A DNA stretch of 64,000 nucleotides from Roseibium sp. MMSF_3544 (GTDB taxonomy: Bacteria; Pseudomonadota; Alphaproteobacteria; Rhizobiales; Stappiaceae): contig NZ_JASHKA010000004.1 of the NCBI RefSeq assembly GCF_030732845.1, positions 248,001 through 312,000 on the forward strand, given 5' to 3'. Below are positions 8,212 to 23,844 of the stretch, in pieces. A program made the translations under genes and the position numbers. Within the stretch, counting starts at the first letter, position 1, and every line of letters begins with the position of its first letter. The notes under the pieces were generated by a model that ran no database searches, was not told the DNA's origin, and worked only from the letters and a program-made list of their open reading frames with translations.

Positions 8212-8784
8212 TCAGTCTTCGGAATCGTTTTTCAACGCCTGCAAGGCAGCAAATGGCGACGGTTTCGAATCTTCTTCTTTATCGGGCACAGTTTCTTCTT
8301 CACTGCCGCCTTCGAATTCGGCGCCTGGCTTGCGCGGGAACGGATCAAGCGAAAGCGCAAGCTCTTCGCAGATTACCGCACCGAGATCCAGCACGCCGTC
8401 GACGATGGCGTCAGGCGGATCAAGTGATTCCAGGTCAATTTCGATTTCACCTGCCTCGTTCAGATCTCTTACTTTCCGAGGCCTACTCGAGACGGGTTCG
8501 AAGGTCCTGTCGACGTCCAGGGTCACGTGGCTCTCAAACGGCTCGAGCGAAACAACACAGTTCTGTGTGATGTCGGCGCTGACCTCTCCAACAACACGCA
8601 GGCCTTCCTTTCTGTAAGGCTTGAGCGTGAAGCTAGCTTTCAAGTCCTTCATTGCGACAAGATCATACGCAGCTGAAATAGACTTCAGCTCCCTTGCATC
8701 CGGCTGCACCACAATCGTCTCATCCTTGTCGACAACTTTCCTGGCATTGACCGAATGGGAAAAGGGAAATGTTTCTGATGCCAT
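8212..8784 (-). CDS. DUF177 (YceD-type) protein
   Basis: The 190-residue protein belongs to the DUF177/YceD family, small proteins usually encoded beside rpmF-plsX. In other bacteria and plastids, relatives are linked to 23S rRNA or ribosome maturation. The conserved core is visible: an N-terminal beta-rich region beginning SETFPFSHSVNARKV and the central CVVSLEPFESHVTLDVDRTF-like block with a single Cys. The acidic C-terminal tail (GGSEEETVPDKEEDSK) is common. The ATG at 8784 gives this start; longer in-frame readings would overlap the upstream bc1-chaperone gene. It follows that gene by 31 bases on the same strand. Confidence 0.9.
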   Translation of the reverse strand: MASETFPFSHSVNARKVVDKDETIVVQPDARELKSISAAYDLVAMKDLKASFTLKPYRKEGLRVVGEVSADITQNCVVSLEPFESHVTLDVDRTFEPVSSRPRKVRDLNEAGEIEIDLESLDPPDAIVDGVLDLGAVICEELALSLDPFPRKPGAEFEGGSEEETVPDKEEDSKPSPFAALQALKNDSED

Positions 8785-20368: not shown

Positions 20369-21676
20369 TTAATCCCCGTAGATCGGGAACCGGGCTGTCA
20401 GTGCTTCTACCTTGGCTTTGACGGCTGCTTCAACCGCCGCGTTGCCCTCTTCACTGTTTGAGGCCTTCAAACCATCCAACACTTCCGTGATCAGCCCGGC
20501 AACTTCGCGGAATTCCGCAACCCCAAACCCGCGGGTCGTGGCCGCGGGCGTGCCAAGCCGGATACCGGATGTGACGAACGGTTTTTCCGGGTCGAACGGA
20601 ATGCCGTTCTTGTTGCAGGTGATGTTTGCGCGTCCAAGCGCCTTTTCAGCAGACTTGCCGGTCGCATTCTTCGGGCGCAGGTCCACCAGCATCAGGTGAT
20701 TGTCCGTGCCACCGGAAACAATGTCGAGCCCCTGCTCTTTCAATGCCTCGGCAAGTGCCTTGGCATTTTCGGTGACGGCACGGGCATAGGCCTTGAATTC
20801 CGGCTGAAGAGCTTCCTTGAACGCCACGGCCTTTGCGGCGATCACATGCATGAGAGGGCCGCCCTGGAGGCCAGGGAAAACCGCAGAATTGAACTTCTTT
20901 GCAAGCGCTTCGTCGTTCGACAGGATCACGCCGCCACGAGGACCGCGCAAAGACTTGTGTGTCGTGCTGGTTACGACGTGGGCGTGGGGGATCGGAGACG
21001 GGTGCACGCCGCCAGCGACAAGGCCAGCGATGTGGGCCATGTCGACCATCAGGTAGGCACCGATGCTGTCTGCGATCTCGCGGAATTTCTTCCAGTCCCA
21101 AACACGGGAATAAGCCGTTCCACCCGCCAGAATGAGCTTCGGCTTGTGTTCGTGGGCAAGACGCTCGACTTCTTCCATGTCGAGCAGATGATCGTCCTCG
21201 CGCACGCCATAGGACACAACATTGAACCACTTGCCGGACATGTTGACCGGAGAGCCGTGGGTCAGGTGGCCGCCGGAGTTGAGATCAAGGCCCATGAAAG
21301 TGTCGCCCGGCTGCAGCAGCGCCAGGAATACCGCCTGGTTCATCTGGCTGCCGGAGTTGGGCTGAACGTTTGCGAACTGGCAGCCGAACAGCTCCTTGGC
21401 CCGCTCGATAGCGAGCGTTTCGGCGACATCGGCAAACTCGCAACCGCCGTAGTAGCGTTTGCCCGGATAGCCTTCGGCATATTTGTTGGTGAAAATTGAG
21501 CCCTGGGCTTCCAGAACAGCGCGGGAAACGATGTTCTCTGAAGCGATCAGCTCGATCTCGTGCTGCTGACGGCCGAGCTCCTGCTGAATGGTGCCGAAAA
21601 TATCCGCATCGGCCTCAGCGAGACTGCGGGTGAAGAAACCGGAATGGGATTGCCCCGAGCTTTCCATCAAAGACAT
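20369..21676 (-). CDS. glyA: Serine hydroxymethyltransferase
   Basis: PLP enzyme that interconverts serine and glycine and feeds one-carbon units to tetrahydrofolate. The 435 residues include the N-terminal [26 protein letters not shown], and the PLP-lysine motif [16 protein letters not shown]. The ATG at 21676 is chosen because AGGA lies about 8 bases upstream and the family starts near here; an in-frame extension of 17 residues lacks a ribosome-binding site. It leads the glyA-nrdR-rib unit. No glycine or folate riboswitch was recognised in the 218 bases upstream. Confidence 0.97.
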
Positions 21677-21894
21677 CGCACGATCCTTTAGTTCATTTGC
21701 CAAGAACCTGGCCCCGGCGGTCTTCAACGTTCAGACCTTCTTGCACCCGTTGGCCGACTTGGCGCGAGGAATTAACACAGCGCCCCTGCAGAACCAAGGG
21801 GCATACCGACGCGGTCAATTGGGAAAACGACGCGTTTGCGTTCAAGGAATCTTTTTCCCAGCGAAAATATTCACCCGGAGCTAGCCGGCCCGGG

Positions 21895-22122
21895 TCAGTA
21901 AAGTGTCGGATCCGACGCCCGGCTGCCGGTCGACGCAATCTGCTGAATACGGCGAAGCAATTTGCGCACGGCAATGCGCTTCAGGTCTTCTTGCGCAGCA
22001 GATGCCGGGCCAAATGTCGAGACCTCGATGCCGGTTGCGGCATCGATCGCAATCACCTTCACCTGCTTCCCGATCGGATGGTACTCCAGATAGATTTCGC
22101 CTGGTCGCGGATCGCGACTCAT
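21895..22122 (-). CDS. Small conserved protein (DUF6898-like)
   Basis: A 75-residue protein with the pattern PGEIYLEYHPIGKQVKVIAID ... GIEVSTFGPASAAQEDLKRIAVRKLLRRI. It resembles short alphaproteobacterial proteins of the DUF6898 type found next to glyA; that assignment is from memory and not verified. No signal peptide or membrane segment is present; a beta hairpin followed by a basic helix is likely. The even composition, conserved look and position favour a real gene. Function unknown. Confidence 0.75.
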   Translation of the reverse strand: MSRDPRPGEIYLEYHPIGKQVKVIAIDAATGIEVSTFGPASAAQEDLKRIAVRKLLRRIQQIASTGSRASDPTLY

Positions 22123-22158
22123 CTTGGATCTCCCGACTGTGTCATGCCCAAAAAGCCA

Positions 22159-22191
22159 CGAAACGCCGGCCTTATCAAGACCGGCGTTTCG
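22159..22191 (-). terminator. Terminator, original ldt terminator
   Basis: Perfect 11-bp stem CGAAACGCCGG / CCGGCGTTTCG with an 11-base loop. On the minus strand it is followed by GTGGCTTTTTGG, a short T run. If the MITE-like element at 22225-22488 is removed, this hairpin lies about 30 bases after the ldt stop, so it is the likely native terminator of that gene. Confidence 0.8.
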
Positions 22192-22224
22192 TTGTTTACA
22201 GTCGTTTTTTTGGTCGGAAACCTA

Positions 22225-22488
22225 GGGTCAAGACTCATTAATTTGGCTGAATTGGTAGGGATAAATTTGTTCGGATACGAGGCGCAAAGCTGCAGGAAAC
22301 CGTCCGGTTTCCAAAGATTTGCAACGACGTTGCCGCGCAAATTCACCCTATCCTGAAGGGACGCAAAAACGGATTCAATCTGCCGCGTCAAACCGCTCAA
22401 CCGGGCAGGAAGCCCGCTTGTCGCGCTTTTCCTTGCAGCTCATCGCCGTTTGCTGCGCCAATTCAACCAAATTAATGGGTCCTGACCC
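22225..22488. mobile_element. MITE-like element with 33-bp terminal inverted repeats
   Basis: A 264-bp non-coding insertion. Its ends, including flanking TA, match as inverted repeats over 33 bases with 3 mismatches: 22223-22255 (TAGGGTCAAGACTC, then ATTAATTTGGCTGAATTGG) and 22458-22490 read in reverse. The flanks are CTAG on both sides with TA duplicated, the target preference of IS630/Tc1-type transposases, so a related transposase elsewhere probably moved it. An internal palindrome GGAAACCG-TC-CGGTTTCC lies at 22295-22312. No transposase gene is inside; a 93-codon frame across it has no family features. Length, terminal repeats and target duplication together make this a convincing miniature element. 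Confidence 0.85.
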
Positions 22489-23813
22489 TAGAGCCGCGCC
22501 TGCGTTTCCGTCCCCGTGCCGTAGAGATCATCCCGGTTGTAGATGTCTTCGCGGAAGTGGATGACACCGTCGGAATTGGCCCAGGCGGTCACGTAGGTCA
22601 TGTAAAGCGGAATGGATTTCTTCAGCTTCACATCCTCGCGCTCGCCGGTCCGGATAATGGAATCAACGCGCGTGCGGTTCCAATCCGGGGTGGTGGACTG
22701 CAGCAGCCAGGTTACCAGCTCACGTACGTTCTGGACGCGTACACATCCGGAGGAATGGAAGCGCTGGCTTTCCCCGAAGAGCGTCTTCGACGGTGTATCG
22801 TGCAGATAGACCTGATGTTTGTTGTGGAAATTGATACGAACAGATCCCAGCGAGTTTTCCGCGCCCGGATCCTGCGTGAAGCGATACTGGGTCGCTTCGT
22901 CCGTATTCCAGTCGATCTGCTGCCAAGCCAGCTCATTGCCGCTCCAGTCGAAGATGCGGATGTTGTTCTTGGCCAGATACTGCGGATCTTCCTTCATTTT
23001 CGGGATGAGATCCTTGCGAATGATCGAAACCGGCACCGTCCAGTACGGATTGAAGTTCAATTCGTAGATCTTGCTGTTCAGGATCGGCGTCTGGCGGTCG
23101 ATTTTTCCAACGACGGCCGTGTGGCGCGAGCGCACTCGCCCCTCCTCGACGGCCTCAATCTCGGCCGCAGGAATGTTCACCATCACATAGCGGTCGCCCA
23201 AAAATCCTGACATGGACCGCAGACGGACGAGGTTGGTTTCAAGCTGTCTCAGTCTCACGTCCGCAGGAATGTTCAGCGCCTGGACCGTGTCTTCGCCCAT
23301 AATTCCGTCCGGGATCAGGCCGTGGCGCAACTGAAAGCGGCGCAGCCCAGAATCCACATAGGAATCAAAGGTATCGGAAAGACCGGCTTGCTGTTCAAGA
23401 TCGCCGGATCCGATCAAGCGGCGGCGCAGTTCAACAACGCGCGGGTCCTTGGCACCGATGCGGAGCGCCTTGCCACCACCAGTGACTGTTCCCCAACCGC
23501 CTGCCTGGACAATGCGCTGATAGCGGTCGATCGCAACCGAGATGTAGTCGGCTGTTGCCGGTGACAGGGTCGGCGCTGACGAATTGACTTCGGTGATGTT
23601 TTCGGTGGCAATGTCGAAGTTATCGGTCCATTCGACATTTTGACGGTTCTGCTGCAAGGACTGCAATGCGGTCTGCGCGCTTGCCGGAGTCCCAAATGCC
23701 AGAAGGCTTCCCAGTCCGATTGCACATGTGCTCAGGACCAGTTTCCCAACACCCTGGTTCACGTAACGCGTCTTCCCGGTCGTTCCGGCTAAAAGGTGCA
23801 TTGCCATCCTCAT
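22488..23813 (-). CDS. L,D-transpeptidase with peptidoglycan-binding domain
   Basis: Periplasmic YkuD-type enzyme of about 441 residues that forms 3-3 cross-links in peptidoglycan or attaches proteins to it. Order: signal peptide (hydrophobic LVLSTCAIGLGSLLAFG ending ASAQ), a peptidoglycan-binding domain (DPRVVELRRRL ... GLRRFQLRHGLIPDGIMGEDT), then the YkuD domain with the catalytic motif HDTPSK ... RFHSSGCVRVQN containing the nucleophilic Cys. It corresponds to the LdtP-type enzymes controlled by LdtR in Liberibacter and rhizobia. The stop codon TAG lies exactly at the edge of the MITE-like insertion. Several ATGs compete at the start; 23813 has AAGG 7 bases upstream. Confidence 0.92.
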   Translation of the reverse strand: MRMAMHLLAGTTGKTRYVNQGVGKLVLSTCAIGLGSLLAFGTPASAQTALQSLQQNRQNVEWTDNFDIATENITEVNSSAPTLSPATADYISVAIDRYQRIVQAGGWGTVTGGGKALRIGAKDPRVVELRRRLIGSGDLEQQAGLSDTFDSYVDSGLRRFQLRHGLIPDGIMGEDTVQALNIPADVRLRQLETNLVRLRSMSGFLGDRYVMVNIPAAEIEAVEEGRVRSRHTAVVGKIDRQTPILNSKIYELNFNPYWTVPVSIIRKDLIPKMKEDPQYLAKNNIRIFDWSGNELAWQQIDWNTDEATQYRFTQDPGAENSLGSVRINFHNKHQVYLHDTPSKTLFGESQRFHSSGCVRVQNVRELVTWLLQSTTPDWNRTRVDSIIRTGEREDVKLKKSIPLYMTYVTAWANSDGVIHFREDIYNRDDLYGTGTETQARL

Positions 23814-23844
23814 TCGCTGCGCCTTACACATCCAAATTTAATTG

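What the first reader, a model, noticed from the sequence alone, without database searches (positions are those of the whole stretch)
22225..22488. MITE-like element inserted exactly at the stop codon of an L,D-transpeptidase
33-bp terminal inverted repeats with 3 mismatches, TA duplicated within CTAG on both sides, 264 bp with no transposase. In the minus-strand reading, the TAG stop of ldt lies at the element edge, and removing the element places a strong terminator about 30 bases after the stop. The insertion therefore lengthens the ldt 3' UTR by 264 bases without changing the protein. CTAG/TA targeting points to an IS630/Tc1-like transposase acting in trans.
Basis: partly seen in the sequence, partly recalled or inferred. 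Interest (0 to 1): 0.7.

Follow-up and report, generated by a model that had tools for sequence, protein, structure and literature searches.

The report
Foldable jumping DNA with swappable ends
A 264-base mobile DNA element sits exactly at a gene's stop codon; it belongs to a widespread bacterial family whose folded middle is conserved while its ends change, the reverse of what is usual for such elements.

Summary
It is 264 bp with near-perfect terminal repeats (TIRs) and TA duplicated inside CTAG, at the TAG stop of ldt. It is multicopy in its own genome and matches 29 of 45 genomes of its genus, own included. Relatives have empty CTAG sites at the ldt stop; two other species carry different subtypes at the same stop codon.

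The IS630/Tc1 reading is not supported: two insertion sequences sharing one 17-bp end encode two-ORF IS5-family transposases, and the target is YTAR.

The interior is a covarying fold: TIR stem, two arms, mini-hairpin (72 of 84 pairs with compensatory changes). An interior-only model finds mostly ~264-bp elements across Alphaproteobacteria and in other classes, including Azotobacter, many with unrelated TIRs. So the fold is conserved and the ends change.

Stop-codon insertion is explained by CTAG targeting plus selection against gene disruption. No partner IS with the same end was found in the own genome, and neither transposition nor transcription was tested; the function of the fold is inferred.

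The parts
22225..22488 (-). 264-bp non-autonomous element; the canonical (arm1 first) strand is the minus strand, same direction as ldt
22225..22255 (.). terminal inverted repeat, plus-strand left end (pairs with 22458-22488)
22458..22488 (.). terminal inverted repeat, plus-strand right end; its outer 17 bp (read on the minus strand) GGGTCAGGACCCATTAA occur at one end of two IS5-family elements
22223..22224 (.). TA target duplication, left
   Evidence: YTAR target
22489..22490 (.). TA target duplication, right; first two bases of the ldt TAG stop on the minus strand
22362..22457 (-). arm 1 of the conserved fold (A1 columns 33-136)
   Evidence: model R2
22351..22361 (-). central mini-hairpin (A1 columns 137-147)
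22256..22350 (-). arm 2 of the conserved fold (A1 columns 148-248)
   Evidence: model R1
22488..23831 (-).
22158..22192 (-). terminator-like hairpin of ldt, 29 nt after the stop in the joined flanks, 295 nt after it now
   Evidence: similar hairpin in relatives

Best explanation
A selfish, non-coding transposable element. IS5-family transposase (the two-ORF, IS711-like kind) probably acts in trans on its ends and inserts it into YTAR, mostly CTAG, duplicating TA. Because the element begins with G, insertion into a C-TAG stop codon regenerates TAG, so such insertions leave the protein intact and survive; the ldt copy is one of these. What keeps the family together is its roughly 200-bp interior, a conserved fold of two arms around a mini-hairpin closed by the TIR stem. 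Natural selection keeps this fold, while the terminal repeats change from lineage to lineage, presumably to match the transposase at hand. The fold most likely acts in cis as a single strand (RNA more likely than ssDNA) that helps the element persist. Shown: copies, target, fold, covariation, changing ends, empty sites. Inferred: trans-mobilisation, how the ends were changed, and the function of the fold.
For: Copies: own genome, 29 of 45 genomes of the genus. Length: 43 of 64 inverted end pairs within 5 kb are 261-266 bp (printed one too short). Target: YTAR in 91 of 99 TA-flanked copies. IS sharing one exact 17-bp end: L129, L179; six IS match the element model significantly only at their ends. 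Interior homology with 40 bp cut from each end: 47 of 55 distant elements, all on the same strand, versus 1 of 275 shuffles. Fold: 91.3% of cells paired versus 68.2% shuffled, 0 of 500 shuffles reach it, slid versions 45.3% or less, 72 of 84 pairs with changes on both sides; 12 unpaired interior columns keep one base in 33-37 of 38 rows. Changing ends: of 27 new loci found by an interior-only model 17 have a TA-flanked TIR pair, 14 of them 260-267 bp, about 10 with ends of no evident likeness to the window's by eye (control 0 of 86 positions). In the own genome L006 has interior identity 0.84 but 0.45 over the terminal 22 bp. Arm-1 tolerance: G-T 48 versus A-C 10, other loci 61 versus 10. Stop codons: 44 of 96 insertions at the stop of an ORF of 100 codons or more, 14 inside ORFs.
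Against: No IS with the window-type end was found in the own genome; the nearest in the genus, in G013 and G032, begin GGCTC. G036 has no IS5_3 match and G042, which has the most matches, only sub-cutoff ones. No IS was found for the GTGTGGTGCGCGG ends or, judged from end spacing alone, for the GGTCATACCCTC ends. L129 and L179 share the exact end on one side only. No transposition or transcript was measured. Arm 2 shows no G-T excess (14:24; 33:48), so the RNA reading rests on one arm; RNAalifold favours G-U when choosing pairs, and the alignment was fitted to the model. In L040 and L041 the ends are as conserved as the interior (0.70 and 0.80 against 0.73 and 0.68).
Confidence: 0.77

Rival explanations
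1. Ordinary IS5-derived MITE. The interior is passive, and pairing in the arms is kept by mutational repair of palindromes (template switching), not by selection.
For: Template switching can correct quasi-palindromes without selection (recalled). Arm 2 shows no G-T excess.
Against: Twelve unpaired interior columns keep one base in 33-37 of 38 rows, which palindrome correction does not explain. Length clusters at 261-266 bp (43 of 64 pairs) and 260-267 bp in 14 of 17 elements found without using the ends. Interior homology persists across the class without TIR likeness. Arm 1 has a G-T over A-C excess in two sets.
Confidence: 0.15
2. A variant of the best explanation in which the fold acts as DNA: the two arms extrude as hairpins (cruciform or ssDNA at the fork), bring the ends of a very short element together, and form part of the transposition substrate.
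For: TIRs pair with each other and the two arms flank a central hairpin. Orientation relative to the gene is even, 21:23. In 12 of 55 sources the arm-2 model also matches arm 1 on the opposite strand, so the arms look like inverted copies there.
Against: The arm-1 bias towards G-T over A-C on one strand fits RNA better. IS5-family elements with related ends lack such arms.
Confidence: 0.3
3. MITE of an IS630/Tc1-mariner transposase.
For: TA duplication is also typical of IS630/Tc1 (recalled).
Against: The IS found with this end are IS5 family. YTAR with TA duplication is published for IS711 (PMC2266754, passages). No IS630 element with these ends came up, but none was searched for as such.
Confidence: 0.03

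Closest known systems
IS711/IS6501 and related two-ORF IS5-family elements (IS5 membership of IS711 and the subgroup name IS427 are recalled)
   Same: 842 bp, 20-bp imperfect inverted repeats, two overlapping ORFs, TA duplicated in YTAR (PMC2266754, passages). The genus elements L216-L219, L222 and L230 are 833-841 bp with TA at both ends.
   Different: They encode transposase; the six IS compared match the element model significantly only at their ends.
Bacterial MITEs such as QMITE2 (Coxiella) and MITEPye1 (Paracoccus)
   Same: Short, no transposase, TIRs plus target duplication, stable predicted transcript folds, mostly intergenic or 3' of genes (PMC10969869 and PMC11578231, passages).
   Different: In the passages read no covarying fold conserved across classes and no exchange of TIRs around a conserved interior is described.
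Structured repeats of Borrelia plasmids
   Same: Compensatory changes in repeats lying downstream of, or overlapping, gene ends (PMC2674063, passages).
   Different: In the passages read: mostly short stem-loops in one genus, with no link to a transposase family.
CIR repeats of Caulobacter and other alpha-proteobacteria
   Same: Long intergenic repeats reported in the same class (title cited in PMC10969869; original paper not held).
   Different: Not tested: no CIR sequence was available, so an overlap cannot be excluded.

Membership tests
MITE (non-autonomous TIR element) | under 500 bp, TIRs, target duplication, no transposase | tested here: met
MITE (non-autonomous TIR element) | multicopy at unrelated sites | tested here: met
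MITE (non-autonomous TIR element) | TIRs shared with an autonomous partner in the same genome | tested here: inconclusive
   exact 17-bp end at one end of IS5-family elements L129 (Rhodovulum strictum) and L179; none found in the own genome
IS5-family (IS711-like) mobilisation | an IS sharing the end encodes an IS5-type transposase | tested here: met
   PF13340 + PF01609; NF033580, second ORF above cut-off
IS5-family (IS711-like) mobilisation | YTAR target with TA duplication | tested here: met
   91 of 99 TA-flanked copies; 20 of 119 copies lack TA on both sides
IS5-family (IS711-like) mobilisation | transposase moves the element | not testable with these tools
   needs a transposition assay
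IS630/Tc1-derived MITE | IS630-type transposase with the same ends | tested here: inconclusive
   the IS found with this end are IS5 family; IS630 transposases were not searched for separately
Known Rfam RNA family | covariance-model match | tested here: not met
   0 matches: window 21500-23000 to E 1; 8 loci at gathering scores
CIR repeats | sequence homology to CIR1/CIR2 (names recalled) | not tested
   no sequence held

The most novel reading that the evidence does not exclude
A mobile structured nucleic acid spread across Pseudomonadota in which the folded interior is the conserved replicator and the terminal repeats are exchangeable adaptors: it persists for very long times by refitting itself with the ends of whatever IS5-type transposase is present, and the fold acts as RNA or ssDNA.
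Probability: 0.5. Interest if true: 0.85.

Novelty: new variant of a known kind. Interest (0 to 1): 0.7.

Why it matters
MITEs are usually seen as IS debris: ends conserved, middle free to drift. Here the middle is conserved with extensive covariation and the ends vary, which implies a working part inside a bacterial MITE and a way to outlive any one transposase. It also gives a simple rule for why such elements sit exactly on stop codons: a CTAG target plus a first base G keeps TAG intact. The fold can be tested by ordinary mutagenesis.

Tried and rejected
IS630/Tc1: not supported, though not searched for as such.

Partner IS in the own genome: 14 end matches; the loci around some solo ends showed none. 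The own IS5 (C9:41187-41923) has a GGTGATGGACTCATTAA end of another type. L100 was first counted as a same-end IS, but its GGGTCAGG end pairs only over 1384 bp and the ORFs fit an 845-bp pair with GGCTC ends, so it is dropped. Of 35 IS or candidate loci scanned for TA-flanked TIR pairs, 17 gave one; L129 did not pass that scan because its two ends differ too much. Ends GTGTGGTGCGCGG: no IS. Ends GGTCATACCCTC: no IS-sized spacing seen; those loci were not scanned for transposases.

CcrM (GANTC) in the ends as a general control: dropped, because many end types lack GANTC.

Arms homologous as inverted copies: a sequence-HMM test failed (0 of 32), but the covariance model finds it in 12 of 55 sources, so it is reported as partial.

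Stop-codon targeting as a special preference: not supported. Against CTAG sites in the same flanks the stop:other ratio does not differ (29:22 versus 20:25, P 0.31); insertions inside ORFs are depleted (5 of 56 versus 18 of 63, P 0.01). Searches counted some elements on both strands; one search replaces them. One search printed lengths one too short. The lengths (88 of 99 at 262-266 bp) come from copies required to match the model end to end, so they are partly by construction.

Strand symmetry of G-T tolerance: one search suggested it for arm 2 (14:24), but another set gave 33:48 with 13 versus 15 sequences, so it is not claimed.

Phages: no match. Plasmids: 4 records, Phyllobacterium and Nitratireductor; none for L412 or L419.

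Rows dropped: 6 ambiguous-orientation elements of 38 for the subsets. The alignment with five of them flipped was not used for counts. In one search the second hits of L158, L106 and L174 overlap the first and were not counted; second hits of L128, L091, L153, L194 and L346 lie elsewhere. In one search, 6 of the 10 loci without a TIR pair are cut by contig ends, so the scan was centred off the match there; the same holds for L414 and L418.

Full report
WHAT IS THERE. The element occupies 22225-22488 with 31-bp ends, continued by CTA on each side (34 nt, 3 mismatches). ldt ends at its edge. The own genome has five near-full-length copies at 92-100%, this one included, and more diverged ones. 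In the genus, 29 of 45 genomes, own included, have matches; G042 alone has 38. The genus is Roseibium/Labrenzia by inference: contig lengths of G006 (168781 and 328969) equal those of Labrenzia alba records CXTY01000006 and CXTY01000003.

THE LDT SITE. ldt has a match in all 45 genomes. I read the 30 best loci: the window's own (L315) and 29 of 44 relatives. 27 relatives show no element in the 107 nt after the stop; six of these end in TAG, four as CTAG (L316, L317, L343, L344), followed within some tens of bases by a terminator-like hairpin. Two relatives, G036 (L318) and G042 (L319), carry elements at the same TAG. They are other subtypes: the window element is 0.61 identical to the G036 one and at most 0.60 to the G042 one, but 0.96 to another copy in its own genome. 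The G036 one is 0.92 identical to a copy elsewhere in the window's genome. The G042 element lies in the opposite orientation (nhmmer strand against ldt strand). So this stop codon was most likely hit three times independently. All three elements are 264 bp.

TARGET AND STOP CODONS. Of 119 distinct full-length insertions in held loci, 99 have TA on both sides, 58 as CTA..TAG and 91 as YTAR. Of 96 with enough flank, 44 lie at the stop of an ORF of 100 codons or more, 14 inside ORFs of 150 or more, 38 elsewhere. Genes run 21:23 with respect to the element. Compared with other CTAG sites in the same flanks (20 stop, 25 other, 18 inside), the CTAG insertions (29, 22, 5) show depletion inside ORFs (P 0.01) but no significant stop preference (P 0.31). 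Over all YTAR sites the stop excess is clear (P 7e-5), but that mixes target types. ORFs were called by simple rules, not by a gene finder. An annotated example: in Phyllobacterium plasmid NZ_CP104969.1 a CDS ends on the first base of the element and the next CDS is annotated as starting inside it.

WHO MOVES IT. Scanning end pairs in records found by exact end patterns (genome contigs: 120 stretches, scan stopped at its limit; viral contigs: 3) gave 64 inverted pairs within 5 kb; 43 are 261-266 bp after correcting the off-by-one. Four are IS-sized. L179 (846 bp) and L129 (866 bp, Rhodovulum strictum) carry the exact 17-bp end on one side and a variant (GGGTCAGGACTCATTGA, GGCTCCAGACTCATTGA) on the other. 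They encode a DUF4096 protein and a DDE_Tnp_1 protein, the latter above the cut-off of NCBIfam IS5 model NF033580. L100 also holds an IS5-type gene pair, but its own ends are ambiguous. L112 (837 bp) showed no IS5-like ORF by eye. In the genus, TA-flanked IS5-family elements have ends such as GGCTCAGGACTCATTGA, GGCTTCAGACTCATAA and GGATGCGGACTCATAAA (a pair was found in 17 of 35 loci scanned). Published IS711 is 842 bp, has two overlapping ORFs and duplicates TA in YTAR (PMC2266754, passages). No IS with the window-type end was found in the window's genome, so the mobiliser there is lost, diverged or missed. nhmmer with the full element model against six of these IS gives significant hits only at the ends.

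THE FOLD. 90 distinct elements bounded by recognisable ends 230-320 bp apart were collected: 47 are exactly 264 bp, 79 are 262-266. All 90 joined an iterated profile; as that profile is trained on them, one search is the proper test. With 40 bp cut from each end, a profile of 36 close copies finds 47 of 55 distant elements, all in one orientation, against 1 of 275 shuffles. On 38 dereplicated elements the consensus fold has 84 pairs in 11 helices: a TIR stem, arm 1, a mini-hairpin and arm 2. 91.3% of cells are paired against 68.2% shuffled; 72 pairs have changes on both sides; the covariation score is 0.596 against 0.177; 0 of 500 shuffles reach any of the five measures; slid versions stay at 45.3% or below. 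Each helix has pairs with changes on both sides. The structure was derived from this same alignment, which inflates the share of paired cells; related sequences also exceed the shuffles to some degree. Twelve unpaired columns of the interior keep one base in 33-37 of 38 rows. Six rows were ambiguous in orientation.

ENDS THAT CHANGE. In the genus, copies such as L006 (own genome) and L035 keep interior identity 0.84 but only 0.45 and 0.57 over the terminal 22 bp, in 264 bp; L034 shows 0.85 and 0.68. L040 and L041 do not show this (0.73/0.70 and 0.68/0.80), L032 and L038 have doubtful edges, and 3 of 11 loci gave no end pair. A model of mini-hairpin plus arm 2 with a few flanking bases (R1) hits 17 of 385 class genomes at E 1e-6 or better (one is the own genome, the other 16 lie in 16 other families; 9 candidates scored per genome). 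Of 27 new loci, 17 have a TA-flanked TIR pair with up to 4 mismatches in 18, 14 of them 260-267 bp, against 0 of 86 control positions in the same loci. By eye 3 of the 17 have window-like ends (L346, L348, L374), 3 have GGCCATGGACTCATAAAT-like ends that recall other IS5 ends, one is partly alike (L349, GGGTCTGAACCCAATTC), and 10 look unrelated, such as GTGTGGTGCGCGGTTATTTGG, GGACCTGTTGACAG and GAGCGGTTCTCGGTAGATAGGA. In 398 phylum genomes R1 hits 54, 38 of them outside the class; some hits are partial or weak and no shuffled-genome control was run. Seventeen of those loci were read, 7 of them outside the class. Three of the 7 are clear: L412 (264 bp), L421 (262 bp, between GTA and TAC) and L419 (239 bp). 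L417 is weak, L415 showed no end pair, L414 and L418 were cut. The L421 stretch led to an Azotobacter chroococcum plasmid copy (Gammaproteobacteria) of 265 bp between CTA and TAG with GGGTCTGTTGACG ends (R1 E 7.7e-8). An arm-1 model (R2) matches next to R1 on the same strand in 24 of 40 sources, two of them in part.

STRAND. In arm 1 the G-T and A-C cells on the canonical strand are 48 and 10 (24 sequences with more G-T, 0 with more A-C, 32 rows). In matches from other loci they are 61 and 10 (21 against 3), or 41 and 10 without close relatives (14 against 3), on an alignment fitted to the model. Arm 2 gives 14:24 and 33:48. This points to a single-stranded folded state of arm 1, RNA more naturally than DNA. 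The pair choice by RNAalifold favours G-U, but it applied equally to arm 2, which serves as an internal control.

FUNCTION. Shown: mobility traces, target, fold under constraint, change of ends. Inferred: IS5 transposase in trans; recombination with IS ends as the source of new TIRs; a cis-acting role of the fold. For ldt the direct effect, if the transcript runs through, is a 3' UTR longer by 266 nt (element plus TA) ending at the same terminator; no promoter-like site was found in 22100-22560.

KNOWN OR NEW. No Rfam family matches. In the listings of ten literature searches (at most 10 papers shown each, one search matched 558) and the passages of four papers I saw no description of this element. 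The library lacks most subscription papers, and ISfinder and the CIR paper could not be searched. Covarying repeats (Borrelia, PMC2674063) and MITEs overlapping gene ends are known (same paper, passages); a covarying interior conserved across classes with changing TIRs is what appears new.

Noticed in passing
L318 (G036) and L319 (G042), ldt stop codon: Two other species have different subtypes of the element at exactly the same ldt stop codon, one in the opposite orientation: a repeatedly used site.
   Followed up: yes
L348, L369, L374, L352, L133, L154, L354, L368, L185, L206, L180, L353: The arm-2 model also matches arm 1 on the opposite strand, so the two arms look like inverted copies of one motif in these 12 of 55 sources.
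   Followed up: partly
L097, L210 (302 bp), L153 (309 bp), L142 (299 bp), L098/L156 (278 bp): Longer forms of the element; in L153 the predicted fold shows extra hairpins at the central mini-hairpin.
   Followed up: no
L350, L367 (G263, 1.5-Mb genome): Short forms of 171 and 202 bp with quite different ends in a small genome.
   Followed up: no
L214 (IMG/VR contig) 8317-8582: A 266-bp member lies on a contig classed as viral.
   Followed up: no
G000:C9:41187-41923 (L232, L248, L252): The own genome has an IS5-family element whose readable end GGTGATGGACTCATTAA resembles the GGTGATGGACCCATAAA end of the G042 ldt-site element.
   Followed up: partly
window 22225-22255 and several IS5 ends: One end often reads GACTC, a GANTC (CcrM) methylation site (recalled), but many end types lack it.
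   Followed up: partly
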